A stretch of DNA of 64,000 bases from Solirubrobacteraceae bacterium (GTDB lineage Bacteria; Actinomycetota; Thermoleophilia; Solirubrobacterales; Solirubrobacteraceae): NCBI GenBank assembly GCA_017882445.1, contig JADGPK010000005.1:1-64000 (forward strand). Reading direction: 5' to 3'. A program made the translations under genes and the position numbers. Of the stretch, positions 19,242-51,421 are shown one piece after another (the stretch's first letter is position 1; each line of letters starts with the position of its first letter). The notes beneath the pieces were generated by a model, which was not told the origin of the DNA, ran no database searches, and saw nothing but the letters and a program-made list of their open reading frames with translations.

Positions 19242-21281
19242 TCAGGCGCGTACGCGACCCGAGCCCCTCGACGTGCGGCGCGCGGAGACGTTTCGGTTCC
19301 ACTCGACCCAGGCCGCGCCGGTGCGCCCGTCTTCGGCGCTTACCAGGCACATGGCGCGCGGGAACTGTGAGATGCGACCGTCGGGCGCCTCGAGCCTGAG
19401 TGGCCCGAAGGCCGCGGGCTCAATGTCGAGCATAAGGGCTCCGAGGCCGACCTGCGCGGAGGTGATGAGCCCGTCGGCGCCGACCTGCTCGGAGGCTCTC
19501 ACGCTGTCGAGCTCGATGACGCCGCCGGCGGGCGGCTGGAGGTATCCGAGGCCGATCGGCGGTGCTCCGGGGATCCGGAACTCGACCGCGTGGAAGCGTG
19601 TGCCGTCGTCCAGGTGTCCGGCGCACCACATCCACTCGGCCGACCACCAGTCGCGCGTGCCCCACGAGTGGTCGCGCTGTCCCAGGCCGTTCAGGTCGAT
19701 CGTCTCCTGGCCGATCCGCACCGTGCCGCTGACGCTGCAGGGGATCTCGTAGCGGGTGGCTACGCGGTAGGCGTAGGGCTCGCCGAGCGTCTCCCACACG
19801 ATGTCGAAACCTGCAGAGACTGGCTCACCGCGATCGCCGCACAGGAGCGAGGCCGGATCGGCGTGGGACTCGCCCTCAGCATCGATGCGCACTCGGAAGC
19901 GCTCGAGTGCGGACTCGCACACGTGCTCCGCCCGCAGCCCTGGCCTCTCGATCGTGAGTACAGCGCCGTCTGGTAGCGGCGCGGCGAAGTCGACGATCGC
20001 CACGGTCGGGCGCTCGGGGCCGCAGATGAGCGCGGTCAGCCAGCACACACCGAGGTTCGGGTAAAGCCCGAGGCGCGTGTAGAGCCCGGTCCGGCCGTCC
20101 TCTGAGATGGCATCGAAGTACCAGCTCTCGTTCCACAGTTCCTCCGGGCCGGCGGGGTGACGCCCCTCCTCGCCGGGATCCGGGCGCGGCGCGGGGGGCC
20201 GGCCGGAGCCCGACGGCGGGAGCAGGTCGAGGGCATCGAGGTCGAGGACCTGCTGGGCGTAGCGCGCGAGGCTCGTGAGGAACATCTCGTCGCCGCGCTC
20301 CGTCCGCTCGACGATGACCGCCGGACCGACGGTCATGAGAATGCCCAGGAAGCTCTGGCGGCGGTATCCGCTCCAGCAATCCGACCAATCGAACCCGCGC
20401 ACGCCGTGGGCGCGCAGGGTGTCGTAGTACTCGCGAACAAGCTCCTGCTCGTGCCGGCGCCTGTCCTGGAGCGTAAGTGAGCCCCCGAGGAAATAGGAGG
20501 CGTCGCTCATGACCGGGCCCCAGCTGACCGTCTGCCAGTCCACGACGACAAAGCGTCGCGGCGCTTCCTGCACGCCGAACAGCATGTTGTCGAGTCGGTA
20601 GTCGCCGTGCACCAGGCCCAGCGGCGGGCGACGGTCGCTGACCCAGCCGTCGAGGCTGGCGACGAAGCGCCGGCAGACCTCCTGGTGCTCGGCCAAGACG
20701 TGGTCGCCGTAGCGCTCGAGGAACGCTTGCAGCAGCTGGCTCATGAGCGCCTGGCCGAGCACGTTCTCCTGGTTCAACCAGGGAGTGGCGCCGAGCTGAG
20801 GATCGGCGAACACCGGCGCATGAAGCTCTGCCAGCTCGCAGAGCGCCAGCCTGGCCTGCTCCACGGCGCAGCCGGCTATCTGGTCTCCCTGAACGGCGGG
20901 CGAGACATCCTCCAGCAACAGCGTGAACGATCCCTGGTCAGGATCGATCACCGCGAGATGACACTCCGCCAGCGGACCACCCACTCTCGGCGCGAGCTCG
21001 CGGTAGAAGCGGACCTCGCGGTCGTAGACGCCGAGCCCGACACCGGCCGAGCGGCTGTTCTGATCCGCCGAGGCCGTCTTGAGCACGACCGTCGGCGGCC
21101 CAGCGTCCGGTCCCGGGACGTAGTCGATGCTCACGCGGCAGCTCTCGCTCATCTGACCCGTGCCTATGCTCTCGATTCTGAAGGCATCGATCGGGCCGGA
21201 GCCCAACGCTCCTGCAAGCCACTCGCTCGTGAGGTCCTCGGGAAGCCCCAGGACCGGTGCGTCGCTCCTCATCACATGCAT
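19242..21281 (-). CDS. Two-domain protein: APH-type phosphotransferase plus lipocalin-like C-terminal domain
   Basis: A 679-residue protein from ATG 21281 (ATG 21272 also possible; both have weak ribosome-binding sites). The N-terminal half (about 1-350) is an aminoglycoside-phosphotransferase/ecdysteroid-kinase-like fold with the catalytic LVHGDYRLDNMLFG (HGDxxxxN) and the metal-binding VVDWQTVSWG. After a Pro-rich linker (about 360-385) comes a C-terminal domain with WNESWYFD and GQRDHSWGTRDWW, matching proteins I associate with DUF7064/7065 or CrtC/AttH-like lipocalin folds. It is probably a small-molecule kinase joined to a lipid-binding domain; the substrate is unknown. It is followed downstream by the tRNA on the other strand. 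Confidence 0.72.
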   Translation of the reverse strand: MHVMRSDAPVLGLPEDLTSEWLAGALGSGPIDAFRIESIGTGQMSESCRVSIDYVPGPDAGPPTVVLKTASADQNSRSAGVGLGVYDREVRFYRELAPRVGGPLAECHLAVIDPDQGSFTLLLEDVSPAVQGDQIAGCAVEQARLALCELAELHAPVFADPQLGATPWLNQENVLGQALMSQLLQAFLERYGDHVLAEHQEVCRRFVASLDGWVSDRRPPLGLVHGDYRLDNMLFGVQEAPRRFVVVDWQTVSWGPVMSDASYFLGGSLTLQDRRRHEQELVREYYDTLRAHGVRGFDWSDCWSGYRRQSFLGILMTVGPAVIVERTERGDEMFLTSLARYAQQVLDLDALDLLPPSGSGRPPAPRPDPGEEGRHPAGPEELWNESWYFDAISEDGRTGLYTRLGLYPNLGVCWLTALICGPERPTVAIVDFAAPLPDGAVLTIERPGLRAEHVCESALERFRVRIDAEGESHADPASLLCGDRGEPVSAGFDIVWETLGEPYAYRVATRYEIPCSVSGTVRIGQETIDLNGLGQRDHSWGTRDWWSAEWMWCAGHLDDGTRFHAVEFRIPGAPPIGLGYLQPPAGGVIELDSVRASEQVGADGLITSAQVGLGALMLDIEPAAFGPLRLEAPDGRISQFPRAMCLVSAEDGRTGAAWVEWNRNVSARRTSRGSGRVRA

Positions 21282-21464: not shown

Positions 21465-21950
21465 TCAGCTTCGTGCAGACGTGAGCTTTGCCTGCTGGGC
21501 GCCTGTCGAGATTCGCACGACGTCCCACGCGAGGCCAAGCCGCCCCAGGGCGTCGATCAGCCACCCACCGGGATCGAGTTGCCAGCGGGTGAGGCCGTGG
21601 TGCGCTGAGGTGGGGAATGCGTGGTGATTGTTGTGCCAAGCCTCGCCAAAGGTCGGGAGGGCGAGCCATGCAAGGTTGCGCGACTCGTCGCCCGTGCGGA
21701 AGCGACGGCGGCCGAAGAAGTGGCACAGCGAATCGATCGAAAAGGTCGCGTGGTGCAGGAACAGGATGCGAACCGCTCCACCCCACAGCAGACCCGTCAG
21801 GCCGCCGATGACCGAACCGGTCAGCGCCACCCCGAGGCCAAACGGGAACATGAGTCCCAGGAGCACCCACAGCGGGAACGTGCGGTCGACGGCGCGGAGT
21901 GCGGGGTCGGCGAGCAGATCCTTGGCGTAACGCTCGGGGCTCGCGCGAGC
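21465..21950 (-). pseudogene. 5'-truncated fatty acid desaturase
   Basis: The frame encodes only the C-terminal part of a membrane acyl-CoA/acyl-lipid desaturase: ERYAKDLLADP, a double membrane segment, LFLHHATFSIDSLCHFFG and the third histidine box EAWHNNHHAFPTSAHHG. The first two histidine boxes (HxxxxH and HxxHH) that normally lie about 100 residues upstream are missing, and cspA begins within 130 bases, leaving no room for them. Homology starts near 21950; the first usable start is GTG 21866, giving 133 residues. Without the N-terminal di-iron ligands it cannot be an active desaturase. It is probably a deletion remnant. Confidence 0.75.
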
Positions 21951-22102
21951 GGCACCACGGTAACCACCAGGTTGGCGAGACGGTCCAGCGTCTAGTGTTC
22001 GATCACGAGAGAATCGCCGGGTGATTGAACAGGCATCGGAGATCTCATGAGGGAGCGTCTCGGGCCTGCGAACCGGTTCACGGCCGGCAGGCCCGCAAGG
22101 CG

Positions 22103-22522: not shown

Positions 22523-24082
22523 TCAGTTGACCGCCCGCTCGCGGCCGGCCCAGTAGATCTCCCTCACGGCCTTCTTGTCGTGCTTGCCCAGGCTCGACAG
22601 GGGGATCGACTCGACGAACTCCACAGACTTCGGCGCGAGGACGCTGCCCTTCCGCTCCTTGACGAACTCGATCAGCTCAGCGTCCGTGGTCACGGCGTTC
22701 GCTTCGAGAACGACTACCGCCTTGACGGCCTCCCCCCACTTCTCGTCGGGCACGCCGACGACGCAAACGTCACGCACGGCCGGATGGCCGAAGAGCGCCT
22801 GTTCGACCTCCTTGGGATAGACGTTGAAGCCACCCGAGACGATCATGTCCTTCTTGCGGTCGACGATGTAGAAGTAGCCCTGCTCGTCGCGCACGCCCAC
22901 GTCGCCCGTGCACAGCCAGCCGTCCCGCAGAGCAGCCGCCGTCTCCTCGGGCTTGTTGACGTATCCGAGCGTCACGTTGGGACCTCGCACGACGATCTCG
23001 CCGGGCTCGCCATCGGGCACGCTGGCCAGCGCGTCGTCGGCGCAGCGCACGTCCACGATCGCCACCGGCCGCCCACAGGAGCGCAGCAGGGCGGTGTTCT
23101 CGAGCGCCCGGACGTGGTCGCGCTTGGTGAGGACCGTGATCTGCGCCGGCGCCTCGCTCTGCCCGTAGACCTGGATGAAGATCGGGCCGAACACGTCCAG
23201 CGCCTGCTCGATCCGCTCGGGGCGCATCGGCGCGGCGCCGTACGTGAGCGTGCGCAGGCTCGAGAGGTCGCGATCCGCGATGCCCGGGAGGTCGAGCAGG
23301 AAGTAGAGCATCGTCGGCACCATGAGGGTGCTCGTGACGCGCTCGTGCTCGATTGCGTGGAGGAGCTTCGCGGGATCGAACCCGCCGAGGATCACGTTGC
23401 AGCCCCCGCGCGCCCAGACCGGGAGCACATACACCATTCCGCTGTGGGTGAGGGGCGCGATGTGCGCACTGACCTCGCCCGGGCGCACGTCGAGCTCGAG
23501 CGTGGCCGAGTAGAGGGACGACAGGACGGTGCGGTGGCTGTGGAGCACCCCCTTTGGAAAGCCGGTGGTACCACCCGTGTACTGGATGATGCACTCACGG
23601 TCGGGGTCGATCGCGGGCGCCCCGGAGCCGCCGTCCTGTCCCGTGATGAGGCGCTCGAGCAGCTCGCCGCCCTCCGGCGCCGCGGCCTCATCGGAAGCGA
23701 TCGCGAACTCGATCGCGCATCCTGTGAGGAGCTCGTGTGCACGCTCGGCCATCGTCGCGTCGAACACGAGCGCGCGCGCCTGGGAGTCCTCGATCATGTA
23801 CCTGTGATCCTCGAGCGACAGACGCGCGTTGAGCGGGACGGTCGTGATGCCCGCCCACAGCGCGCCGTACATCACCTCGAGCAGCGCGGGCGAGTCGGCC
23901 ATCACGAACGCGAGCCTGTCGCCTGGCCGCAGGCCCAGCTTCTGCAACGCCCGGCCGGTCTGGCGGATCCGCCCGAACATCTCCGTATAGGTGAGCCGCA
24001 CATTGCCCTGCACGAGCGCCGTCTCCCGCGGGTAGTTGTGGGCACACGCGTCGAGCACGCTGCCAAACGACCTTCCGATCAT
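22523..24082 (-). CDS. Acyl-CoA ligase (candidate beta-keto acid--CoA ligase)
   Basis: A 519-residue ANL-superfamily AMP-forming acyl-CoA synthetase. The P-loop YTGGTTGFPKG, the TGD motif LCTGDVGVRD, the hinge DRKKDM and the C-terminal catalytic Lys in LSSLGKHDKK are all present, so it should be active. ATG 24082 has an AGGAGGAG ribosome-binding site and overlaps the preceding stop (ATGA). It is the last gene of the carboxylase operon, the position held by benzoylacetate-CoA ligase (bal) behind apc1-5 in Aromatoleum. I infer that it activates the beta-keto acid made by the carboxylase; the actual acid is not readable from sequence. Confidence 0.85.
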   Translation of the reverse strand: MIGRSFGSVLDACAHNYPRETALVQGNVRLTYTEMFGRIRQTGRALQKLGLRPGDRLAFVMADSPALLEVMYGALWAGITTVPLNARLSLEDHRYMIEDSQARALVFDATMAERAHELLTGCAIEFAIASDEAAAPEGGELLERLITGQDGGSGAPAIDPDRECIIQYTGGTTGFPKGVLHSHRTVLSSLYSATLELDVRPGEVSAHIAPLTHSGMVYVLPVWARGGCNVILGGFDPAKLLHAIEHERVTSTLMVPTMLYFLLDLPGIADRDLSSLRTLTYGAAPMRPERIEQALDVFGPIFIQVYGQSEAPAQITVLTKRDHVRALENTALLRSCGRPVAIVDVRCADDALASVPDGEPGEIVVRGPNVTLGYVNKPEETAAALRDGWLCTGDVGVRDEQGYFYIVDRKKDMIVSGGFNVYPKEVEQALFGHPAVRDVCVVGVPDEKWGEAVKAVVVLEANAVTTDAELIEFVKERKGSVLAPKSVEFVESIPLSSLGKHDKKAVREIYWAGRERAVN

Positions 24083-24891
24083 CTCGCTCCTCCTGGTGTC
24101 CTTGTCTCTGTCGGTCGCTCGCCGAGTAGGCGCAGTAACGTCAGGTCGCACCCTCGCGGCACTGGCCCGTCGCTCAGGACCACAGCGTTCGAACCCGCGC
24201 TCGCCTCGGCGGTGACCAGCGCGCCGTCGAGGCTCGCGATATCGCTGAACGTCTCGGAACCCAGCAGGGCCGCGCCGCGCCCGCCCGTCGCGCAAGCCAG
24301 CGCGGCGTAGGTGGTCTCGCTGAGACCCTGCGCGCCGACGGCCACCGCGTCGGCCCCAAGCAAGGCAAGGCGACGCAAGATCGGCTCGTGCGCACGTGCC
24401 AGCGCGTCCGACTCGAGGGCGCCGCTGTCGGGCTCCCATACGATCACACGACTCGCGCCCCGCTCGACGTGCGCGGCTGCCAGCGCGGCGACCACGTCGC
24501 CGCAGTCGAACGCGCCGGCTTCGAGGTCGATGTCGCTCTCCGCGAACCGCGAGGCCAGCCGCGCAGCCATCGTCGCCGGGCCGGTCACCGAGGCCGCGAC
24601 TATCCCGGACGGGTATATGCCTCTCAGCGTCGCGGTGAGCTCGAGCGCAGCGCCGCCAAGCACCGAGGCGAGGAGGTCGGCATCGGGCACATCCTCGACG
24701 GTGTCCACCTGCTCGGCCGCACCGCGCGCCTCGAGGTCGAGGTCGTGATGGGTCACGATCCAGTCCGGGCGCCCGAGCGCCACCGCGTCGCGCAGCGCAT
24801 ACGCCCAGCGTGCGGGCTGACGCAGGCGTTCCTCGGGCTGAGTCGCGCTGATGCGCTCCGCCACCTCCTGCAACACGAGTGCGAGTTGCAC
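24079..24891 (-). CDS. Unassigned carboxylase-operon protein (fifth gene, Apc5 position)
   Basis: A 270-residue cytoplasmic protein from GTG 24891, two bases after the HyuB-like stop; an ATG at 24924 would overlap that gene by 31 bases. Recognisable strings such as WIVTHHDLDLEARG, TGPATMAARLA and SRVIVWEPDSGALE have the feel of a TIM-barrel of the uroporphyrinogen decarboxylase/methionine synthase type, but I am not certain of the family. In acetophenone carboxylase the fifth gene encodes a loosely bound epsilon subunit of similar size, so by position this is its counterpart. It overlaps the ligase start (ATGA) and is surely cotranslated. Confidence 0.6.
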   Translation of the reverse strand: MQLALVLQEVAERISATQPEERLRQPARWAYALRDAVALGRPDWIVTHHDLDLEARGAAEQVDTVEDVPDADLLASVLGGAALELTATLRGIYPSGIVAASVTGPATMAARLASRFAESDIDLEAGAFDCGDVVAALAAAHVERGASRVIVWEPDSGALESDALARAHEPILRRLALLGADAVAVGAQGLSETTYAALACATGGRGAALLGSETFSDIASLDGALVTAEASAGSNAVVLSDGPVPRGCDLTLLRLLGERPTETRTPGGAR

Positions 24892-24893
24892 GC

Positions 24894-27047
24894 TCAGCTG
24901 CCCTCGTCCGCCGGCCAATCCCATGAGCCGAGGAAGGGCACGCCCTCCGGGGGCTGCTCACGCCGCCACTCGGCGACGAACTCGTCGTAGCTCTTCCCGC
25001 GTGCGAGCCGTGCTGTTCGCTCATCGTCGCGCGCACTCTCGGTGGCGGCTGCGTCCAGCTCCGCGCGCTCCTCGTCCCAGGTGATCCGGTACACGTTGCG
25101 CGCAACCTCGGGGCTGATGAGACCACGTCGCAGGTCGGTCATGACCGCCTGCGGATCCCGCTCGAGCGGGTCACCATAGCCGCCGCCGCCGCCGATGCGC
25201 TGGATCCAGATCTCGCCCTCCGGGATCGGGGCGGCGGGGCGGGAAGGATTGGTTACCTCGTACTCGCCGGCCAGCGGCCTGTCGGCGAGCATCGACGCGG
25301 CGTCGTAGGTGAGCCCTGGGGCGCCGTTTGCGAGCCACTCGCGCAGCGCGCCGGCGCCTCCCTCGGGCTTGACGATCGTCAGCGGATTACAGCCGCCGCC
25401 ATACCCGCCGAAGAGGCCGCCGGTGACCGGGAACCGCGCGCCGGTGGACGTGACCATGAAGGCGAAGATCTGGCTGCCCCAGAGGGCGTAGGCCCACTCG
25501 ACGGAGGCTCCGCCGCGATGCTTGCCGAAGCCGTGGTTGTCGGGCGGGATGTGGCGCCACAGGCACAGCAACGGGAGCTCTGTCTCCCGGTCCTCGGTCT
25601 CGCCCCAGTCGGCGAGCGTCGCGAAGAACGGCGCGGCGGCGTGCTCGCCGTCGCGGTCTCGGTGTGCCCCGCCGCCCATCGCGTTGATCTCGACGGAGAT
25701 GTTCGCGGTCAACTGGAGGTGCTGGGTGATCCCCCCGTATTGCAGGGTCGGCAGCATCGCGTACCAGGGCGCGATGACCTCGGTGACACCGGGATTCGAG
25801 AACAGCGCCTTGGTCAACGCGGTGTGCACCGTCGTGTTGAGGTAGAAGCCGCTGAGCATCGACAGCGACGTGGGGTGCTCACGTGTCGCGGTCAGCATGC
25901 TCCCGGGCTCGAGCTCGAAGTCGATCGCCGAGACAAACCCGGCGTTGCGGGGCAGATCCGCGAACAGGAAGTTCATGAACTCGTTGCCCACCAGCGACTT
26001 CATGGCGTGTGCCTGCCCGTTCATCGCGCGGTCGATCGCCGGCGCCGTGCCGTGCGTGCGCATGACGAGGCGCTCGCCACGCTTCTCGAACTCGACCGCG
26101 ATCTTGTAGAGGCGCTCCTCGAGCAGCGTGCAGTCGCCGAAGTGCACGGCGCGGTAGATACCGTCGGGCCACTGCGCCAGGCGGCGATGCACCTCCGCCT
26201 CGGTGTTCTCGAGCACCGTGCGCAGCGTGGCGATCAGCAGCTCTGGTGAGCGCTCGCGCATGAAGTCGTGTAGCCGACGCTCCACATCACGGGCCGCCGC
26301 GAGCTTCGAGCGGATGTCGATCAGCCACATCAGCGGATCGCGAACGTGATTCTGGAACATGTTCACGACGTCGCGACGCAGCGTGTAGTCCTCGCCGATC
26401 TTCATCGGCGGGATCCTCAGACCCTCGCCGTAGGGGTCGGTCGCCCGCGGCGCGAAGCCGCCCGGATCGATCGCGCCGTTCTCGCCCTCGTGGACGACGA
26501 CCCCCACCCAGGCGATGTGCTCGCCATCCCGGTAGAGCGGCAGGAGCAGCGTGTGGTCGGGGTTGTGCGCCCCGCCGTAGTGGGAGTCGTTGTGGTAGAA
26601 GACGTCGCCCTCGCGCACGCCGACGGTCGGCTCGTCGGCCCAGTAGCGGTTGATGAACTTGGGTACCGGAGACGCCGCGGCCGAGAAGATGTTCACGCCG
26701 CTGGAGGTGCACAGCGACAGGTCTCCGTCGCGGCTGTAGACCCCGACCGACAGGTCGCCCCACTTGGCGGCGGGCGCCGCGCTGATCTGCTGCAGCATGT
26801 CCTTGGCGCTCTCGATGATCGCCTCGACCCGGCTCTGGGCGATGGTCAGCTCGGTCTCATCGGTGATCGCGGTGAGAGCCGCCTCCTCGCGCTCGCTGCG
26901 CGGTCGGATCCGATGTTCGTTCATGATCTCGGGGTCCGGCCCGAACATGATCGGCTGGTTTGTCAGCAGGTCGTTGAGGAACGCATCGGTTTCCGGGGTG
27001 CGCGGCGCCGGCACGCCCGGCTGCTCCGTGGTGTCGGTCGCTCTCAT
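24894..27047 (-). CDS. HyuB-like carboxylase subunit (acetophenone/acetone carboxylase type)
   Basis: A 717-residue hydantoinase B/oxoprolinase-family subunit. VFYHNDSHYGGAHNPDH (about residues 145-165), DPLMWLIDIRSKLAA and NGAIDPGGFAPRA are typical of acetone-carboxylase alpha and acetophenone-carboxylase HyuB-like subunits. In that enzyme class this subunit carries the active site that carboxylates the enolate of the ketone with carboxyphosphate or CO2. ATG 27047 overlaps the upstream HyuA stop (ATGA); an in-frame extension further upstream is overlap with that gene. N-methylhydantoinase or oxoprolinase is the alternative, but the small zinc-ribbon subunit in the operon argues for a carboxylase. 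Confidence 0.82.
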   Translation of the reverse strand: MRATDTTEQPGVPAPRTPETDAFLNDLLTNQPIMFGPDPEIMNEHRIRPRSEREEAALTAITDETELTIAQSRVEAIIESAKDMLQQISAAPAAKWGDLSVGVYSRDGDLSLCTSSGVNIFSAAASPVPKFINRYWADEPTVGVREGDVFYHNDSHYGGAHNPDHTLLLPLYRDGEHIAWVGVVVHEGENGAIDPGGFAPRATDPYGEGLRIPPMKIGEDYTLRRDVVNMFQNHVRDPLMWLIDIRSKLAAARDVERRLHDFMRERSPELLIATLRTVLENTEAEVHRRLAQWPDGIYRAVHFGDCTLLEERLYKIAVEFEKRGERLVMRTHGTAPAIDRAMNGQAHAMKSLVGNEFMNFLFADLPRNAGFVSAIDFELEPGSMLTATREHPTSLSMLSGFYLNTTVHTALTKALFSNPGVTEVIAPWYAMLPTLQYGGITQHLQLTANISVEINAMGGGAHRDRDGEHAAAPFFATLADWGETEDRETELPLLCLWRHIPPDNHGFGKHRGGASVEWAYALWGSQIFAFMVTSTGARFPVTGGLFGGYGGGCNPLTIVKPEGGAGALREWLANGAPGLTYDAASMLADRPLAGEYEVTNPSRPAAPIPEGEIWIQRIGGGGGYGDPLERDPQAVMTDLRRGLISPEVARNVYRITWDEERAELDAAATESARDDERTARLARGKSYDEFVAEWRREQPPEGVPFLGSWDWPADEGS

Positions 27048-29173
27048 CGCTGCTTCTCCTTGCGCATCGTGAAGAACCCGTACTCGTCCATCCAGCCGTT
27101 CCAGCCGGGCTCGACGAGGATCGTCGTGTCGGCGGCCTCTACCACCGCCGGGCCTTGGAGCTCGTGGCCCGGCCCCAGCGCCGCGTAGTCGTAGACGGGT
27201 GTCGCCTGCAGGCCACCCTGCTGCCACCAGCACTCGCGAGCGCCGCGCCGCGCATCCTCCACGCCGCGATCGACACGCTCGCGCTCCGGCAGCTCCCACG
27301 GCTCACGCGGTATCCATGCCCGCAGGCGGATCGCATCGATCGAAACGCCGACCTCGCGTGTGAGCGCGAGATCGCTGAAACGATCGGCGTACTCGGCGAA
27401 GTAGGCCTTCAGGACCGCTGCGAGGTCATTGTCGCTCTCGATGCGCTCGACCGGGCTGGCGATGGTGATGACATTGAGCTGTCCGGTGGAGCGTACGTCC
27501 AGCTCGAGCGACGTCCGCAGCTCGTCGCTGCCGAAGCCCTCGGCGACGAAGTCCTTGACCGCCTGCTCGCGGAACCCGTCGACGATCGCGTTGAAACTCT
27601 CGTAGTCGCTGAACAGCTGCTTGGTCAGCGGGTTGAACAACGTCAACCAGGCCGAGCGCTCGTAGATTCGGAGCAGCTCGAGTCCGGCCGCGCCGGAGGC
27701 CGAGAAGACCGAGCTGTGCGGGGGGACAACGACCTGCTCCGCGTCGAGCACGCCGGCATAGCCGCAGGCGTGCAGCGGGCCGCCGCCGCCGAACGAGAAG
27801 ACCGTGAACTCGCGCGGGTCATAGCCCTTGAGCGTGACCTCGCGGAAGATCTCCGATCCCATGCGCTCGTCCACGACCTGGCGGATCCGCCGCGCCGCGT
27901 CGAGCACGTCGATCCCAAGCGGCTTGGCGATCCGGCGCTCGATTGCGCGCTCGGCGCGCCGACGGTCCAGCGGAAGCTCGCCGCCGTGGTAGCCGTCTGG
28001 GTCGAGATAGCCGAGCACGAGGTTCGCATCGGTGACCGTGGGCTCGGTGCCGCCCTGGCCATAGCAGGCGGGGCCGGGCGTCGAGCCCGCCGACTGCGGA
28101 CCCACGGCGACGCCGGCGACAGGATCCAGACGGGCGATCGAGCCCCCTCCGGCGCCGATCGCCTTGATGTCCATCATCGGCACCTGAACCCGCCAGCGGT
28201 CGATGACGGGGTTGAACTGGTAGAAGCGCACAGAGCCCTGCACGACGACGCCGACGTCGAATGACGTGCCGCCCATGTCGGTCGTGACGAGCTTGTCGTA
28301 GCCGAAGCTCGCGGCGAGATGGCGCGAGCCGTAGAGCCCTGCCACCGGCCCGGCGTGGACCGTGCGCACCGGCGTCGTGCGTGCGAGGCTGCCCATCCCG
28401 CCCGTGTTGTGTACGAGCAGGAGCTCGCCGCGGTAGCCGCGCACACGCAGATCGTCACGTAGCGCGGACAGCCTGTCGGCGGTGAACCGGTGCAGGTAGG
28501 CGTCGATGATCGCCGTCATCGAGCGGACATACTCGCCCGAGCGCTTGGACACCTCGTGGGAGAGGATCACCGGGAAGCGGCCCAGGTAGCTGCTCGGGTA
28601 CTCCTCCTCGAGGACGTCTCGAATGAGCAGCTCGTGCTGCGGGTTGACGTGGGCGTTGAGCAGGCATACGACGAACCCGCGCACCCCGAGGTCCACGAGA
28701 TCCCCTACGCGCTCACGCACCTCGTCGGCCGAGAGCGGCATCAGGACCTCGCCCGTGTAGGTGACTCGCTCGCGCACGGTCGCGATCTGCTCCGGCGGCA
28801 CGAGCGGCTCCGGACGCTGCGCGCGGGCGAGGTCACGCGTCATCGTCACCGGCAACCCGTCACCCCACTGCCGGCAGCGGCCGATGCCAACCGTGTCGGC
28901 GTGACCCATCGTCGTGATGAGGCCGAGGCGCGGCCCGCTGCGCTCGATCAGGGCATTGGTGCCGAGCGTGGTCGCGTAGCGGATCGCCTCGGTCCGGGCG
29001 AGCAGAGCGTCGGCGTCCGTGTCGAGCTCGCCTGCGATGTCCTCCACGGCACGCATGAAGCCGAGCGCCAGATCGTGATGGGTCGTGAGCGCCTTCGCGG
29101 TCGCCACGCCACCGTCGCTCCTCGTAGCGAAGCAGTCGGTGAAGGTGCCGCCGATGTCCACGTTGATCTCCAT
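27044..29173 (-). CDS. HyuA-like carboxylase subunit, second copy (709 aa)
   Basis: A 709-residue hydantoinase A-family protein with an ASKHA-type ATP-binding fold: VDIGGTFTD at the N-terminus and VTTDMGGTSFDVG near residue 305 are the two phosphate-binding loops. The C-terminal tail resembles acetone carboxylase beta. In acetophenone carboxylase the two HyuA-like subunits hydrolyse ATP, one to activate bicarbonate and one to activate the ketone. ATG 29173 overlaps the small-subunit stop as TGATG. It is longer than the first HyuA-like subunit by about 90 residues, as with the alpha and alpha-prime subunits of that enzyme. Confidence 0.84.
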   Translation of the reverse strand: MEINVDIGGTFTDCFATRSDGGVATAKALTTHHDLALGFMRAVEDIAGELDTDADALLARTEAIRYATTLGTNALIERSGPRLGLITTMGHADTVGIGRCRQWGDGLPVTMTRDLARAQRPEPLVPPEQIATVRERVTYTGEVLMPLSADEVRERVGDLVDLGVRGFVVCLLNAHVNPQHELLIRDVLEEEYPSSYLGRFPVILSHEVSKRSGEYVRSMTAIIDAYLHRFTADRLSALRDDLRVRGYRGELLLVHNTGGMGSLARTTPVRTVHAGPVAGLYGSRHLAASFGYDKLVTTDMGGTSFDVGVVVQGSVRFYQFNPVIDRWRVQVPMMDIKAIGAGGGSIARLDPVAGVAVGPQSAGSTPGPACYGQGGTEPTVTDANLVLGYLDPDGYHGGELPLDRRRAERAIERRIAKPLGIDVLDAARRIRQVVDERMGSEIFREVTLKGYDPREFTVFSFGGGGPLHACGYAGVLDAEQVVVPPHSSVFSASGAAGLELLRIYERSAWLTLFNPLTKQLFSDYESFNAIVDGFREQAVKDFVAEGFGSDELRTSLELDVRSTGQLNVITIASPVERIESDNDLAAVLKAYFAEYADRFSDLALTREVGVSIDAIRLRAWIPREPWELPERERVDRGVEDARRGARECWWQQGGLQATPVYDYAALGPGHELQGPAVVEAADTTILVEPGWNGWMDEYGFFTMRKEKQR

Positions 29174-29535
29174 CACTCGCCCTCCCCGCCCGGCTCAGCG
29201 GCGTGCGCCGCATGCTGCGCCTTGAGCGCATCGACGTCGATCTCGATGTCGTGCGTCAGCGGATGGCCCGGCGGTAGATACTCGGTCTCCACCTGAGTAC
29301 CGCATCCGGGACAGTAGAACTCGACGATCCTGCACCACCGCGGATCGGGGGCGAAGCTGAGCTCTCCGTCGATGCGCGCCGGGTAGATGTCCCGCGGATC
29401 GCGGTCGTAGAGGAGAAGCCCGCGCTTGTAGTCCTCTCGCGCCGGGCCGATCGCGTGCTCGCACACCGCGCATCTCCAGCGCTCGGACTCGAGGTCGATT
29501 TCCAGGTACTCGGTCATGCGCACGCGCGCGCTCAT
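29173..29535 (-). CDS. Small zinc-ribbon carboxylase subunit (AcxC/Apc2-like)
   Basis: A 120-residue protein related to acetone carboxylase gamma and the roughly 15-kDa acetophenone carboxylase subunit. It has two CxxC pairs, CAVC (about 24-27) and CPGC (about 76-79), for a structural zinc site, and the RDPRDIYP and LTHDIEID strings typical of the family. ATG 29535 overlaps the upstream HyuA stop (ATGA). This subunit is what separates ketone carboxylases from ordinary hydantoinases and oxoprolinases, so it is the key evidence for the operon's function. Confidence 0.8.
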   Translation of the reverse strand: MSARVRMTEYLEIDLESERWRCAVCEHAIGPAREDYKRGLLLYDRDPRDIYPARIDGELSFAPDPRWCRIVEFYCPGCGTQVETEYLPPGHPLTHDIEIDVDALKAQHAAHAAEPGGEGE

Positions 29536-31391
29536 GCTTGCTCCTCTCCCTCGAAGCTCAGGCGCTCGGCGCCGTAGTCGTCGACCACCAGCGTCCAGCC
29601 GGGCGGCACCGCACACGTCGTGGTCGGCGAGTCGACGAGCGCCGGGCCCCGAAGCGCGGCACCGGCTCCCAGTCGATCGCGCCGGTGAATCGGCGTGGCG
29701 ACGACGCCGACATCGGGCCAGCGCACCTCGCAGGAACCCTCGGGCTCGGTGACGACGTCGGCGCTGGCAGCTGCAGCGATCAGCCCCAGATCCACATGGG
29801 GCAGCTCGCGCGTGGCCTCGAGCGCGACCCACTCCGTCCCGTCGCGCTGCGAGCGCCGAGCCTCGAGCTGGACTTCGTTCCCATCGAACCCCTCGCCGCG
29901 CATGTCGCGCAGAGCGCGCACACGCAGAGCCTGCTCGTCGTACTCCTCCGCGCGCACCTCATAGCGATGGCGCACGTCGGCCGTGGAGGCGCCGAACGCA
30001 CTGAACACGGGCGAGAACGGCAGGGTCATCACGTCTCTGATCCCCGCCGCCTGAGCGATACCGGCACAGTGTGTCGCGCCGTTGCCGCCGAACGCGAGCA
30101 CAGTCGCGGATGACGGGTCTACGCCCCGCGCGCGCAGCTCGCCCGCCAGCCGCTCCCCCATCACCTCGTGCACCGTTGCGCGCACCTGCCAGGCCGCCTC
30201 CGGAACATCGCACCCCAAGGGCTCGGCGACGCGCAGCAGAGCCCGGCGTGCCGCATCGACGTCGATCGCCATGCTGCCGCCCATGAACGCCTCGGGCCGC
30301 AGGATCCCCAGCACCACGTCCGCGTCGGTCACTGTGGGCTCCTCGCCGCCGAAGCCGAAGCACGCCGGCCCGGGCTTGGCGCCTGCGCTTCGCGGCCCGA
30401 CGCGCAGCCGCTCGCCGTCGAGCCAGGCGATCGACCCTCCTCCGGCACCCAGAGGCACGAGATCCGGGAGGGGAAAGGCGACCTCGACACCCTCGACGCG
30501 GCCGTGAGCGAGCATCGACACCTCTCCCCCGCGCACGATTCCGATATCGAGACTCGTCCCGCCCATATCCAGGGTGACGAGCGTGTCGAGCCCGTACAGC
30601 CGCGCGATCGCGCGCCCGCCCAGCAGGCCGGCCATCGGTCCGGAGTTGTACGTCTTGGCCGCGACCGTCTTGGCGACGCGTGCGCAGCCCCCGTCGTTGT
30701 GCACGACCATCAGCGGTCGCCGATATCCCTGGTCACGCAGGTAGTCCTCGGCCCGGTACAGGTAGTCGGCGACATCGGGGTGGACATAGGCGTTGAAGAG
30801 GGCTGTGGCTGTGCGACGCGCATCGTCGCGGTCGGATGTGATCTCGCTTGCAAGGAGCAGCGGAACGGTGTCGAGACAGGTGTGGGGGTAGTGCTCCGCG
30901 AACAGCTCGCGCGCGCTGCGCTCGCCCGCTTCGCCGCCTGCGCCCTGACCGAGCGCAGCCACGATCCCTCGGGCGCCGTCATCGAGAAGCTCGCGAACCG
31001 CGCTCAGCATCCCCTCCCTCTCGGGGGCGCCGTCGGCATCCGCGGCCGTGCGACGGCGCACCATCTCGGCGTCGACGAACAGACCGATACCGTGATCGCG
31101 ACCGTCCTCGGCGGGGAGCTCGGGGCCCGCGATCAACCCGAGCCGCGGGCCTCTTCGCTGGATGACCGCGTTCGTTCCGACGGTCGTCGCGTAGCGCACC
31201 GAGACCGTGTCGCGCAGCATCTCCGAGACGGTCGTCCCCAGCGCGTCGGCGGCGCCCTCGATGACATCCGTGAAGCACACGGCCAGGTCGTGCGTGGTTG
31301 TCAGCACCTTGACCACGTGCGCCCGCCCATCGCGGAAGACGAAGCCGTCCGTGAACGTGCCGCCGGTGTCTATGTCGATCGTGATGCTCAA
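29532..31391 (-). CDS. HyuA-like carboxylase subunit, first copy (619 aa)
   Basis: A 619-residue hydantoinase A-family protein, first gene of the carboxylase operon. IDTGGTFTDGF and TLDMGGTSLDIG form the ATP-binding loops; GAGGGSIAWLD follows. The start is TTG 31391, backed by a GAGGAG ribosome-binding site with eight-base spacing and the family-typical MSITIDIDTGG start. It is transcribed divergently from the thiolase across a 120-bp region that contains an inverted-repeat operator. Together with the second HyuA copy it would provide the two ATP-hydrolysing sites of an acetophenone carboxylase-type complex. Confidence 0.82.
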   Translation of the reverse strand: MSITIDIDTGGTFTDGFVFRDGRAHVVKVLTTTHDLAVCFTDVIEGAADALGTTVSEMLRDTVSVRYATTVGTNAVIQRRGPRLGLIAGPELPAEDGRDHGIGLFVDAEMVRRRTAADADGAPEREGMLSAVRELLDDGARGIVAALGQGAGGEAGERSARELFAEHYPHTCLDTVPLLLASEITSDRDDARRTATALFNAYVHPDVADYLYRAEDYLRDQGYRRPLMVVHNDGGCARVAKTVAAKTYNSGPMAGLLGGRAIARLYGLDTLVTLDMGGTSLDIGIVRGGEVSMLAHGRVEGVEVAFPLPDLVPLGAGGGSIAWLDGERLRVGPRSAGAKPGPACFGFGGEEPTVTDADVVLGILRPEAFMGGSMAIDVDAARRALLRVAEPLGCDVPEAAWQVRATVHEVMGERLAGELRARGVDPSSATVLAFGGNGATHCAGIAQAAGIRDVMTLPFSPVFSAFGASTADVRHRYEVRAEEYDEQALRVRALRDMRGEGFDGNEVQLEARRSQRDGTEWVALEATRELPHVDLGLIAAAASADVVTEPEGSCEVRWPDVGVVATPIHRRDRLGAGAALRGPALVDSPTTTCAVPPGWTLVVDDYGAERLSFEGEEQA

Positions 31392-31511: not shown

Positions 31512-32690
31512 ATGCGCGATGTATTCGTGGCGGGGGCGTTCGTGACCGCCTTCGGCAAGTACCCGGACCGTCCACTGCGATCACTCGCCCAGGACGCGGT
31601 GAGCGGCGTGCTCGCCGACGCCGCCGCGTCGCCGCAGGATGTTGACGCTGTGTTCTTCGCCAACACCGGAGAGGGAGCGCTCAACGACCAGCATTCGATC
31701 CGTGGCCAGGTGGCGCTCCAGCAGACACGCCTGCTCGGCAAGCCGATCGTCAACGTCGAGAATGCATGCGCGTCGGGCTCTACAGCCGTTCATCTCGCCC
31801 GAGCGGCAATCGCTTCGGGCGAGGCGGAGATCGCTCTCGCCATCGGCGCCGAGAAGCTCTCCCATCCGGACAAGGCCAGGACCTTTGCGGCCTTCAGCGC
31901 GGGCTGGGACGTCGAACGCTTCGGCCGGCCTGACCCGACTGCCACCCACTCGGGCTTCATGGACGTGTACGCCGCCATGGCCGTCGCCTACATGGAGCGC
32001 AGCGGCGCGACATCCGACGATTTCGCGGCGGTCTCCGTCAAGAGCCACCGCAACGGCGCGCTCAACCCCAATGCGCAGTACCGCGACCCCCTCACGGTCG
32101 AGCAGGTGCTCGAGAGCCGTCAGATCTCGGGCCCCCTCACGCTGTTGATGTGCTCGCCGATCGGCGACGGGGCCGCGGCGCTGCTGCTCACCTCGCGCGA
32201 GGGGCTGGCCAGGATCGGCGGCACACCCGAAGTCCGCGTGCTCGCGAGCGTCCTTCGGTCCGGCTCGCGCCTGGACATGAACGGAGCCGGGGGCGCGGTC
32301 GCCGATGCCTCGGCCGCCGCCTACGAGCGCGCGGGGATCGGCCCGGCCGATCTTGACGTCGTCGAGGTGCACGACGCGGCGGCTCCCGGAGAGCTCATCG
32401 CCTACGAGGACATCGGCATCGCCGGGCCCGGACGGGGGCCCGAGCTGATACGAACCGGCGCCACGGCCCTCGGCGGCCGCGTGCCGGTGAACCCCGGCGG
32501 GGGGCTGCTGAGCCGCGGCCACCCGGTCGGCGCGACGGGATGCGCCCAGCTGGTCGAGCTCACCGATCAGCTCCGCGGCCGGTGCGGGGCGCGGCAGGTC
32601 AAGGGGGCTCGGGTGGCGCTAGCGGAGAACGGCGGCGGCTGGATCGGCGGCGAGGTCGCCGCGGTGGCGATCAGCGTGCTCGCGAGCTGA
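31512..32690 (+). CDS. Thiolase, SCP2/lipid-transfer type
   Basis: A 392-residue thiolase-fold enzyme. The nucleophilic Cys is in NVENACASGS (about residue 89), and RGHPVGATG carries the catalytic His. The C-terminal motif is ALAENGGG without the second cysteine of classical thiolases, as in SCP2/SCP-x-type members. It has a good GGAGG ribosome-binding site. Divergent from the carboxylase operon and sharing its operator, it is the natural candidate to cleave the beta-ketoacyl-CoA into acetyl-CoA (or a homologue) and a shortened acyl-CoA. Its 3' end overlaps the convergent tetR gene by 20 bases. Confidence 0.85.
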   Translation: MRDVFVAGAFVTAFGKYPDRPLRSLAQDAVSGVLADAAASPQDVDAVFFANTGEGALNDQHSIRGQVALQQTRLLGKPIVNVENACASGSTAVHLARAAIASGEAEIALAIGAEKLSHPDKARTFAAFSAGWDVERFGRPDPTATHSGFMDVYAAMAVAYMERSGATSDDFAAVSVKSHRNGALNPNAQYRDPLTVEQVLESRQISGPLTLLMCSPIGDGAAALLLTSREGLARIGGTPEVRVLASVLRSGSRLDMNGAGGAVADASAAAYERAGIGPADLDVVEVHDAAAPGELIAYEDIGIAGPGRGPELIRTGATALGGRVPVNPGGGLLSRGHPVGATGCAQLVELTDQLRGRCGARQVKGARVALAENGGGWIGGEVAAVAISVLAS

Positions 32691-33369
32691 CCGGCGCCGG
32701 CCGGCCGGTTACGCCGGCGGGGTCGGCTGCCGAGGCTCCCGCGCTCCGCGCGCTTCCATAGATCGCCCGCTCCCAGATGAATTGGAGCGTCCTGGCCACC
32801 GCGCGAGGGCTGTCGGTGGGGGCGCGGCCCAGGCGCTCGACAAGAACGTTCGAGTTCATGCTCAGCAGCGCGTGGGCGACCTCGCGAGAGCGCGGAACCG
32901 ACGTCCTGCTCGACCGGTTTTCCCTGCGCAGCAGCTCCGCGACCACGTCGATGAAGTCATCGACCACGTGACGGTAGGCGCGCTCGACGTCGTGGTCGTG
33001 GAAGGAGGCCTCGTGGATCGCCCGTAGAAGATGCCCGTGAAGCGCGTAGATCTCCACGACCTGCTCGAGACCGGTGCGCAGCGCGGCAACCGGATCGCTC
33101 GACCGCTCCAGCCACGGGCCGATCGCCTGCATCATCTCCGCCTCGATGTCCTGCAGGAGCCGGAGGATCAGCGCGTTGCGGTCGGCGAAGTAGTTGTAGA
33201 ACGCCGAGCGCACCATGCCCGTACCGGCCATCACCCTGTCGACCGTCAGGTCGCGGAAGTCGTTTCCCTGCAGGAAGGCTTCGGCCGAACCGAGGATCTC
33301 CCGCTCGGCATCCGCCGGCGTTCGCCTGATGCGCCTGCGCGCGGGCGGTGAGGAGGCTGGGACGATCAT
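32671..33369 (-). CDS. TetR-family transcriptional regulator
   Basis: A 232-residue TetR-family protein. The N-terminal DNA-binding domain includes ADAEREILGSAEAFL and the recognition helix region VRSAFYNYFADRN; the rest is a helical ligand-binding/dimer domain. Gene order makes it the likely local regulator: it sits between the thiolase and the GST-like gene, with the three inverted repeats around it. As the second gene downstream of site 2 on the minus strand it could be autoregulated. The ligand is unknown; an acyl-CoA or the ketone itself are options. Confidence 0.88.
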   Translation of the reverse strand: MIVPASSPPARRRIRRTPADAEREILGSAEAFLQGNDFRDLTVDRVMAGTGMVRSAFYNYFADRNALILRLLQDIEAEMMQAIGPWLERSSDPVAALRTGLEQVVEIYALHGHLLRAIHEASFHDHDVERAYRHVVDDFIDVVAELLRRENRSSRTSVPRSREVAHALLSMNSNVLVERLGRAPTDSPRAVARTLQFIWERAIYGSARSAGASAADPAGVTGRPAPVSSRAR

Positions 33370-33441: not shown

Positions 33442-34614
33442 CTAGGCCAGCAGCGAGGCTTCCTCGCGGGCACCCCAAACCTCGCGGTTGGCTGCACGCG
33501 CGACCCGTCTGCGAGGCCGGGCGTCGAGCAAGGGCTCGAGCGCGACCTCGTGGAAGAGCGCGCGCACCACGCGCTGCTCTTCCTCCGAGCACGCCGCGAA
33601 GGCATCCTGCAGACGTTGCAGCATGAGCATGCGATACGGGGGAACCCCGACCGACATCTCCTGGCCTCTCCACGCGAACGTCGCCATGCCGAGAAAGCGC
33701 TTGGCGACATCGTAGGCGAACACCTCTCCCTCGTCGGAGTCCTCGTGCTCGGCGAACCAGCGATCCATGAAGGAGACCTGAGCCAGCATTTCGGCGACGT
33801 GCTCCTCTCCGATGTAGGCCAGAAGCTCCCGCAGGGTCGCGGGGATCTCATCGTCGGCGAAGAGCTGCTGCGGGTAGTCGATGTACTCGCCTGCGTCGAA
33901 AGCCGGCGAGTTCATTCGCTCGACCCAGCGCCAGACCCGCCCGGCCGTCCGCTTCATGATCAGCGAAGGCTGCGGATCGCGGGCCAGATGCGCATAGAGA
34001 GGAGCCATGAAGCCGAAGTCCCCGAGCGTGGGCCGCCCCCCAAGCAGGTACGGCGCCGTCTCCAGGTGGGCATTCAGCAGCGTCAGGAATTCCTCGTAGG
34101 AGCGCTCGATCTCGGGCACTGACCGCTCTGTCACCCCGACCGCGACCGTCGCCTCTCGCAGGGCGCCGCCGGCCCACTCGAACACCTGCTCGCGCACCTC
34201 CCGACCGCCGGCCGGGGCGAGCGCGGTGGCGAGCTCCTCGGAGATGAACGGCATGTTGACCTCATCGAAGTTCCAGCGATAGTGCATGGCCGGGCGCAGC
34301 AGGCCCTCGCCCCCGAACATCTCCAGCAGGTGCGCCACGACTCGCTGCGTGGCAGTCCGTGGATATGCGGAACGCTCGGGAGCGATCTTGGTCTCGAGGT
34401 GATCGATGATGTCCACCGTGTCCTGGACGAGCTCGCCCTCCGGCGTTTCGAGCACGGGCATGATCAGACGGCCGATCTGCGGCAGGACCTCTCCTGCGAA
34501 CCGGGGATCCCCCACCGATCGCTCGACATGGTCGATGCCGTGCTTGCGCAGGTAGGACCGCGCCTTGCCCGAGTAGAGCGACAGGGGCGCGGCGTAGAAG
34601 ACATATGGGTTCAT
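33442..34614 (-). CDS. Glutathione S-transferase-like protein
   Basis: A 390-residue protein with a GST-type N-terminal thioredoxin fold (about 1-80; [21 protein letters not shown] and the cis-Pro segment [11 protein letters not shown]) and a C-terminal helical domain with [19 protein letters not shown]. It extends about 150 residues beyond ordinary GSTs. Most Actinobacteria lack glutathione, so the thiol partner may differ or the protein may be a non-catalytic relative. It is first in a minus-strand pair with tetR, preceded by operator site 2 about 130 bases upstream. Confidence 0.7.
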
Positions 34615-34742
34615 CGGCGATCCTCCGTTCGGCTGCCGAGATCCCGCGCTGGGACAGCACGACAGGTCCTGTGGGGCGAGGCCCGTCGTCGCAGGGCGGG
34701 CAGACGACGTTGGGTGGCGACCATACCCCGCATCGATCCCGC

Positions 34743-34762
34743 TGTCAACACCGTGTCAATAG
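34743..34762. promoter_or_regulatory. Operator site 2 (upstream of GST-like gene)
   Basis: Read on the minus strand this is CTATTGACACGGTGTTGACA. Its first 15 bases match site 1 exactly. It lies in the 287-bp divergent gap between the GST-like gene (34614) and the truncated SDR (34902). The palindrome is imperfect in the outer positions (ACAC-C-GTGT core). Confidence 0.55.
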
Positions 34763-34881
34763 TGACGCCTTATGGCAGCCCCTCTGCAATCGGCCGGGTC
34801 AGCCGCGCCTCGAGTCGGCCACTCGAGTCGGCCACTCGCGTCGGCCTCCCCGCGCCCCGGGGGCGCGCTGCGCGTCCCCTT

Positions 34882-34896
34882 TTGACATAATGTCAA
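34882..34896. promoter_or_regulatory. Operator site 3 (upstream of SDR genes)
   Basis: TTGACATAATGTCAA is a perfect 15-bp palindrome. On the minus strand its flank reads TATTGACA, shared with sites 1 and 2. It ends five bases before the ATG of the truncated SDR gene, so it overlaps the translation start region; a bound repressor would block transcription into both SDR genes. Confidence 0.6.
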
Positions 34897-34901
34897 TAAG
34901 G

Positions 34902-35207
34902 ATGGGCTACGACTTGAAAGGGAAGGTCGCGCTCGTGACCGGAGGGACGCGCGGGATCGGCCTGGCGACCTCGAGGGCTCTGATCGCGCGCGGGGCGTCG
35001 GTCATGATCACCGGCCGAGCGAGGGAGGATGCCCAGCGCGCGGCGGGCGCGCTGCATGACGACAGGGCGGCGGGCGTTGCGGCGGACGTGAGCGATCGCA
35101 CGGCGATGCCGCGCGCCGTCGCGGAGTGCGTGGAGCGATTCGGACCGGGCAGTGGTGGGCTCAGCCGGTCCCCAGCGCACACGGGCACGGCAAGGATCGT
35201 CGGTTGA
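34902..35207 (+). pseudogene. 3'-truncated short-chain dehydrogenase
   Basis: The frame begins as a normal SDR, with the Rossmann motif [11 protein letters not shown] and the fold continuing through [11 protein letters not shown] to about residue 84 (VERFG). It then passes into unrelated sequence and stops at codon 102. The NNAG motif and the catalytic Ser-Tyr-Lys are absent, so no dehydrogenase activity is possible. No frameshift continuation was found in the remaining bases before the next SDR. It is probably the 5' remnant of a deletion that placed the intact SDR gene close to operator site 3. Confidence 0.72.
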
Positions 35208-35229
35208 GTCGCTTGAAGAGGAGGTTCCA

Positions 35230-51411: not shown

Positions 51412-51421
51412 GTGGCCTACC

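What the first reader, a model, noticed from the sequence alone, without database searches (positions are those of the whole stretch)
22523..31391. Complete acetophenone-carboxylase-type operon (apc1-5 + bal order) in an actinobacterium
Six coupled genes occur in the order HyuA-like (619 aa), zinc-ribbon small subunit (120), HyuA-like (709), HyuB-like (717), a 270-aa fifth protein, acyl-CoA ligase. Seen: intact ATP loops in both HyuA proteins, CxxC pairs in the small subunit, HNDSHYGGAHNPD in HyuB, junctions of ATGA/TGATG/2 bases. Known (from memory): acetophenone carboxylase of Aromatoleum uses two HyuA-like, one HyuB-like, one ~15-kDa and one ~34-kDa subunit, followed by benzoylacetate-CoA ligase; acetone carboxylase has only one HyuA. 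Inferred: an ATP-dependent ketone carboxylase with its own CoA ligase. Here it adjoins an SCP2-type thiolase and an SDR, so a full secondary alcohol to acyl-CoA route is encoded in what looks like an aerobic lineage.
Basis: partly seen in the sequence, partly recalled or inferred. Interest (0 to 1): 0.78.

Follow-up and report, generated by a model that had tools for sequence, protein, structure and literature searches.

The report
Acetophenone-carboxylase-type operon in soil actinobacterium
Six joined genes encode a complete, five-part, ATP-driven enzyme of the acetophenone carboxylase type, which fixes CO2 onto a ketone, plus its CoA ligase; the kind is known, but this one sits in an untested branch with a different active-site pocket, so its natural ketone is probably not acetophenone.

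Summary
In detail: six coupled minus-strand genes at 22523-31391 in the order apcA-B-C-D-E-ligase. Four products match the four subunits of the solved Aromatoleum core complex (5L9W) better than acetone carboxylase, caprolactamase or N-methylhydantoinase. The fifth, which has no family hit of its own, is a real ApcE homologue: profile search, AlphaFold (pLDDT 82) and Foldseek link it to the uroporphyrinogen-decarboxylase fold and to the deposited ApcE structure 9FOU. Zn cysteines, the beta metal site and both ATP sites are intact. A divergent thiolase and a TetR gene are conserved beside the nearest relative's operon, as expected for ketone -> beta-keto acid -> CoA ester -> thiolysis. Acetophenone as substrate is not supported: trees place the window in a separate clade (100/99) with clade-wide changes of the substrate pocket, and no box or Bcr-type benzoyl-CoA route was found in the genome. 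The 'secondary alcohol' step is weak: the nearest SDR is a remnant and the intact one is not conserved beside relatives. Apc-type operons in Actinomycetota, including Solirubrobacterales, were reported before. Verdict: a new member of a known kind, in a clade whose substrate is open and testable.

The parts
29532..31391 (-). apcA-like gene: Apc-alpha' (second HyuA-type ATP-binding subunit), 619 aa, TTG start
   Evidence: phmmer to 5l9w 'alpha subunit' chain E 5.9e-99; NF042960 385 bits, below the equivalog cut-off of 1250; alpha' clade in tree
29173..29535 (-). apcB-like gene: small Zn-ribbon subunit, 120 aa; C22, C25, C75, C78
   Evidence: 5l9w_C E 2.6e-40, 57% identity; PF08882 E 3.2e-35
27044..29176 (-). 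apcC-like gene: Apc-alpha (HyuA-type ketone-kinase subunit), 709-710 aa
   Evidence: 5l9w_B E 1.1e-185 vs Acx 5e-101 and N-methylhydantoinase 9e-101; trees
24894..27047 (-). apcD-like gene: Apc-beta (HyuB-type) subunit, 717 aa; putative metal site D98, H161, D164, H186
   Evidence: 5l9w_A E 3e-94 vs Acx 9e-45; residue mapping; the four ligands conserved in all Apc-type rows
24079..24891 (-). apcE-like gene: epsilon subunit, 270 aa, URO-D fold, GTG start
   Evidence: profile of ApcE homologues 41.1 bits, E 3.8e-11; hhalign 97% vs <=1.7% for 200 control ORFs; AF2 pLDDT 82.4; Foldseek to 9fou ApcE E 6.9e-6
22523..24082 (-). acyl-CoA ligase gene (bal position), 519 aa
   Evidence: PF00501 E 5e-81 and PF13193; YTGGTTGFPKG motif and C-terminal GK in the sequence; ligase gene near several relatives' operons
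31512..32690 (+). divergent thiolase gene (SCP2/BbsB-like), 392 aa
   Evidence: PF22691 and PF00108; NF053628 BbsB 221 bits, below cut-off; 651 bits to the thiolase beside L098's operon
32671..33369 (-). TetR/EthR-type regulator, likely local regulator (inferred)
   Evidence: PF21313 EthR_C E 2e-11; counterpart beside L098's operon 264 bits

Best explanation
The locus encodes a five-subunit, biotin-independent, ATP-dependent ketone carboxylase of the Apc type and the CoA ligase and thiolase that process its product. By analogy with Apc, the alpha subunit would phosphorylate the enol of a ketone and alpha' would make carboxyphosphate from bicarbonate. CO2 would join the enol at or near the beta-subunit metal site with help from the URO-D-fold epsilon subunit, giving a beta-keto acid. 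The ligase would form its CoA ester and the thiolase would split off acetyl-CoA or a homologue. Shown here: homology of all five subunits, intact motifs, gene linkage, and membership of a separate clade with its own pocket residues. Inferred: the reaction, the division of labour, and that the ketone is not acetophenone.
For: Each core subunit matches its 5l9w counterpart far better than Acx, caprolactamase or hydantoinase. The fifth gene is an ApcE homologue by profile (41.1 bits; reciprocal), by predicted fold and by family alignment that finds 9fou at 2.5e-97 (that alignment contains close ApcE relatives, so it identifies the family, not the window protein alone). Zn cysteines and the metal site are conserved. 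A ligase and/or thiolase gene lies near many relatives' operons, which suits a beta-keto-acid product and not hydrolysis. Separate clade in alpha (UFBoot/SH-aLRT 100/99), alpha' and beta (SH-aLRT 99). Pocket signature: Aromatoleum clade mostly L/M-F/Y-N-P-I/V-Q-T/S, window clade T-I/V/M-H-P-I/V/M-H/D/S-L/I/M in all 17 rows. No BoxB, no BoxC above cut-off, no HGD-D/Bcr in the genome.
Against: No member of this clade has been tested to my knowledge. No NCBIfam equivalog cut-off is reached by any subunit. The alpha' residues that Weidenweber et al. used to assign bicarbonate (Glu248, Lys281) are Asn249 and Asp282 here, so the role of alpha' is less sure. Several alpha pocket positions (T73, V273, P277, I325, D336, I337) equal those of the genome's own hydantoinase-type protein, which differs only at H274. 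A relative, L059, keeps the core genes but shows no epsilon.
Confidence: 0.75

Rival explanations
1. It is an ordinary acetophenone carboxylase: same substrate as Aromatoleum, in a divergent host, feeding benzoyl-CoA.
For: Same gene order including apcE and the ligase; best PDB matches are all 5l9w chains; thiolase is BbsB-like at 221 bits.
Against: Separate clade at 100/99; five of seven mapped ketone-pocket residues differ, and the change is clade-wide; no box or Bcr-type benzoyl-CoA route found in a 95% complete genome.
Confidence: 0.15
2. It is an ATP-dependent hydrolase of a cyclic amide (hydantoinase or lactamase type) that kept extra subunits.
For: The alpha pocket is nearly that of the genome's hydantoinase-type HyuA; hydantoinases share the alpha and beta folds (PMC5214803).
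Against: Hydrolases lack the small subunit, alpha' and epsilon (PMC5214803), all present here; nearest characterised relatives are carboxylases for every core subunit; CoA ligase and thiolase beside it suit a beta-keto acid.
Confidence: 0.05
3. The fifth gene is not a subunit but a separate URO-D-fold enzyme (methyltransferase or decarboxylase) that happens to lie in the operon.
For: Fold is shared with URO-D and methylcobalamin:CoM methyltransferase; some relatives' operons show no epsilon.
Against: The fifth position after apcD recurs in most relatives with a detectable epsilon; in A. aromaticum ApcE must be added back for activity (PMC4729919), and 9fou is ApcE itself.
Confidence: 0.05

Closest known systems
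Acetophenone carboxylase ApcABCDE and Bal of Aromatoleum aromaticum EbN1 (PDB 5L9W core, 9FOU ApcE)
   Same: Same five subunits in the same order followed by a ligase gene; Zn cysteines at identical positions; metal-site residues conserved; ApcE homologue with URO-D fold.
   Different: Separate clade; most ketone-pocket residues changed; alpha' has Asn/Asp where Apc has Glu/Lys; epsilon 270 aa and lacking about 25-30 N-terminal residues; divergent thiolase and TetR genes instead of the ethylbenzene genes.
Apc-type operons of Rubrobacter xylanophilus, Solirubrobacter soli and Paraconexibacter AEG42_29
   Same: Actinomycetota with Apc-type operons, so the setting is not new (PMC5214803, PMC11737030; L053 and L030 here).
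   Different: R. xylanophilus (L053, identified by its contig length) and S. soli (L030) fall in the Aromatoleum clade, not in the window's clade. Paraconexibacter's sequence was not examined.
Acetone carboxylase AcxABC
   Same: HyuA/HyuB/small-subunit core; metal ligands H, D, H align.
   Different: One HyuA only, no epsilon; the fourth metal ligand Glu89 is Asp98 here. The genome has its own Acx-type set on contig C104.
N-methylhydantoinase, 5-oxoprolinase and caprolactamase
   Same: Share alpha and beta folds.
   Different: No small subunit, alpha' or epsilon; much weaker matches.

Membership tests
Apc-type ketone carboxylase (apcABCD(E) clusters, criteria of PMC5214803) | Gene order apcA-B-C-D(-E): alpha', small subunit, alpha, beta, epsilon | tested here: met
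Apc-type ketone carboxylase (apcABCD(E) clusters, criteria of PMC5214803) | Subunits group with Apc and apart from Acx and Hyd in trees | tested here: met
   only the genome's own Acx/Hyd proteins and one related sequence served as outgroups
Apc-type ketone carboxylase (apcABCD(E) clusters, criteria of PMC5214803) | Four Zn-binding cysteines in the small subunit | tested here: met
   C22, C25, C75, C78
Apc-type ketone carboxylase (apcABCD(E) clusters, criteria of PMC5214803) | ASKHA ATP motifs in both alpha and alpha' | tested here: met
Apc-type ketone carboxylase (apcABCD(E) clusters, criteria of PMC5214803) | R/KERiDsxG fingerprint in alpha and not in alpha' | tested here: inconclusive
   alpha has RERVTYTG: R-E-R and G are kept, the Asp is not; most relatives keep the Asp
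Apc-type ketone carboxylase (apcABCD(E) clusters, criteria of PMC5214803) | ApcE homologue present | tested here: met
Acetophenone carboxylase in the strict sense (substrate acetophenone) | NCBIfam equivalog cut-offs for ApcA, B, C, D | tested here: not met
   385/1250, 163/250, 686/1500, 344/1500 bits
Acetophenone carboxylase in the strict sense (substrate acetophenone) | Ketone-pocket residues of the Aromatoleum alpha subunit | tested here: not met
   five of seven mapped positions differ; clade-wide
Acetophenone carboxylase in the strict sense (substrate acetophenone) | Carboxylates acetophenone with 2 ATP | not testable with these tools
   needs an enzyme assay
Acetone carboxylase | Single HyuA subunit, acxABC order, no epsilon | tested here: not met
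Hydantoinase / lactamase (hydAB) | Two-gene cluster without small subunit | tested here: not met

The most novel reading that the evidence does not exclude
The window's clade is a second functional class of five-subunit ketone carboxylase, found in Actinomycetota, Bacillota, Pseudomonadota and Verrucomicrobiota, that works on a ketone other than acetophenone (its pocket carries a conserved His) and whose alpha' site uses the canonical Asp instead of the Glu/Lys pair on which the bicarbonate-kinase assignment in Aromatoleum rests.
Probability: 0.55. Interest if true: 0.55.

Novelty: new member of a known kind. Interest (0 to 1): 0.38.

Why it matters
As of the 2017 structure paper only one Apc had been characterised, and it states that no substrate-site consensus could separate the branches. 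The clade-specific pocket and alpha' signatures found here give a simple rule for telling Aromatoleum-like acetophenone carboxylases from a large sister clade that could easily be annotated under the same name. They also make two open points testable: which ketones the sister clade carboxylates, and whether alpha' really is the bicarbonate kinase. Recognising an orphan protein as ApcE shows that the operon is complete and that highly divergent epsilon subunits can be found by profile and fold.

Tried and rejected
Direct phmmer of the fifth protein against PDB found nothing useful, and pairwise BLASTP to ApcE was marginal (25 bits, E 0.001); only profiles and fold comparison were decisive. I first thought the URO-D fold of ApcE might be new; Foldseek then showed that ApcE itself is already solved (9fou, released 2025-12-24), so that claim was dropped. 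No paper in the held library links acetophenone carboxylase with uroporphyrinogen decarboxylase, and no publication for 9fou was found there. The original Apc biochemistry paper is not held. A VIA-align second look gave Z 18-20 for URO-D and 18.6 for 9fou, which cannot rank one above the other. Substrate guesses from neighbours (flavin monooxygenase, nitroreductase, PucR regulators beside relatives) were too varied to name a ketone. The fifth proteins of group II (L028, L033, L034, L043, L049, L062) connect to ApcE only weakly by single-sequence scores (up to 23 bits) though the two profiles align at hhalign 97%.

Full report
OBSERVATION. The six reading frames exist exactly as described, on the minus strand of 22523-31391: 619, 120, 709/710, 717, 270 and 519 aa, with junctions ATGA, TGATG, ATGA, a 2-base gap and ATGA. 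An AGGAGG sequence precedes the ligase start. The window is contig C54 (95 kb) of a 3.27-Mb, 94.9% complete genome in 234 contigs. Its family code also contains Solirubrobacter soli (contig of identical length), so the host is a Solirubrobacteraceae-level member of Thermoleophilia, Actinomycetota. The closest relatives of the operon are in the same family, which argues against binning contamination.

CORE SUBUNITS. Each of the first four products finds its own chain of the Aromatoleum Apc core structure first: alpha' 5.9e-99, small subunit 2.6e-40 with 57% identity, alpha 1.1e-185 against 5e-101 for acetone carboxylase and 9e-101 for N-methylhydantoinase, beta 3e-94 against 9e-45 for acetone carboxylase. 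No NCBIfam equivalog cut-off is reached. The four Zn cysteines sit at the same numbers as in Apc (C22, C25, C75, C78). The beta site that binds Hg in 5L9W corresponds to the Mn/Fe site of acetone carboxylase (H150, D153, H175, Glu89; PMC5543143, PMC10865871). In the window it is D98, H161, D164, H186. These four are conserved in all Apc-type rows, while the genome's own acetone carboxylase has Glu at the first place.

FIFTH SUBUNIT. The 270-aa protein has no hit in Pfam, NCBIfam or PDB by itself. The proteins at the same place in related operons fall into a family whose more typical members pass the Pfam gathering score for URO-D (PF01208: 27 to 122 bits). A profile of this family finds the window protein at 41.1 bits, E 3.8e-11, with non-epsilon ORFs at 9.7 bits or less. 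Hhalign gives 97% against at most 1.7% for 200 control ORFs. In reverse, a profile of the window protein and its three nearest homologues finds only epsilon proteins. AlphaFold gives pLDDT 82.4, pTM 0.83 for the window protein and 91.5, 0.91 for the Panacagrimonas homologue. Foldseek matches the former to URO-D structures and to 9fou, 'Acetophenone carboxylase subunit epsilon ApcE' (E 6.9e-6), and the latter to 9fou at 1.2e-24, 37% identity. The fold of ApcE is therefore known since the 9fou release of December 2025; what is new here is only that this orphan protein is an ApcE homologue.

WHICH APC. Trees of alpha, alpha' and beta agree. Apc-type sequences split into a clade A with Aromatoleum, Panacagrimonas, Rubrobacter and Solirubrobacter soli; a clade W with the window, other Solirubrobacteraceae, Nostocoides, Sulfobacillus, Brevibacillus, a Verrucomicrobiota genome and several Pseudomonadota; and a few deep rows. 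In the alpha tree W has bootstrap/SH-aLRT 100/99 and A 100/100. The residues that line the proposed acetophenone pocket (L81, F281, N282, P285, I333, Q344, T345; PMC5214803) read L/M-F/Y-N-P-I/V-Q-T/S through nearly all of A but T-I/V/M-H-P-I/V/M-H/D/S-L/I/M in all 17 rows of W; in the window T73, V273, H274, P277, I325, D336, I337. In alpha' the residues E248, D274, K281 are E-D-K throughout clade A and N/S/G-D-D in clade W. Because the assignment of bicarbonate to alpha' was tentative and rested on these polar residues, it should not be carried over to clade W without a test.

PATHWAY. A thiolase gene lies 120 bp away, divergent, and with the TetR gene it is conserved beside the operon of the nearest alpha' relative (651 and 264 bits, L098). 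Ligase or thiolase genes lie near many other Apc-type operons. This suits ketone -> beta-keto acid -> CoA ester -> thiolysis. The alcohol dehydrogenase step is not supported: the SDR at 34605-35207 holds only the first 80 residues of the domain, and the intact SDR at 35152-36132 is a generic one with only weak counterparts (under 100 bits) near a few relatives' operons. The host is aerobic by three COX1 homologues. No BoxB, no BoxC above cut-off and no HGD-D/Bcr protein were found, so a benzoyl-CoA product would have no such route; other aromatic-CoA routes were not tested and the genome is about 5% incomplete.

NOVELTY. Apc-like clusters in diverse bacteria, including Rubrobacter, were described in 2017 (PMC5214803). 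An Apc core operon was reported from the Solirubrobacterales isolate Paraconexibacter in 2024 (PMC11737030) and apc1-4 from Rhodococcus ruber (PMC6498646). A. aromaticum uses Apc aerobically as well as anaerobically (PMC4729919). The finding is thus a new member of a known kind. As noted for A. aromaticum, the genome carries all three branches of the family: Apc-type on C54, an acetone-carboxylase-type set with its own small subunit on C104, and a hydantoinase-type pair on C11. Within the host's family, 12 of 146 genomes show a strong Apc-type small subunit (140 bits or more) and, apart from the window's own genome, none of the sampled members of the genus does, so the operon is patchy.

LIMITS. 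All functional statements are inference from homology. Residue mapping rests on pairwise HMMER alignments and one MAFFT alignment. Outgroups in the trees were few and on long branches.

Noticed in passing
L059 (and L035, L041, L044, L050): Apc-type core genes of clade W without any detectable epsilon gene in the fetched locus; L059 is from a one-contig genome that has a second Apc-type operon (L061) with its own epsilon-like gene.
   Followed up: partly
window 34605-35207: Truncated SDR: only the first ~80 residues of the domain, then a foreign tail, immediately before an intact SDR (35152-36132); remnant or assembly fault.
   Followed up: partly
window 21465-22100: Short fatty-acid desaturase fragment (end of the PF00487 domain) just downstream of the operon, possibly a remnant or frameshifted gene.
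   Followed up: partly
window 19242-20960: Ecdysteroid-kinase-like/APH domain fused to DUF7065 and DUF7064, on the same strand downstream of the operon; role unknown.
   Followed up: no
window 50410-57378: Hopanoid cluster: HpnH, HpnD-like, HpnC and squalene-hopene cyclase.
   Followed up: partly
window 60894-62396: Aldehyde dehydrogenase nearest to phenylacetaldehyde dehydrogenase StyD (635 bits, cut-off 850), in the same window but about 29 kb from the operon.
   Followed up: no
[quoted passage not shown] aromaticum.
   Followed up: partly
L028, L033, L034, L043, L049, L062: A second, very divergent group of fifth-position proteins in clade W operons that connects only weakly to ApcE by sequence; its fold was not predicted.
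   Followed up: partly
L102 4937-5779 and L059 4904-5560: Nitroreductase-family gene after apcD in two Solirubrobacteraceae operons, with a PucR-type regulator at the other side in L059.
   Followed up: no
window 36188-39157: 989-aa secreted-looking protein with no Pfam match.
   Followed up: no
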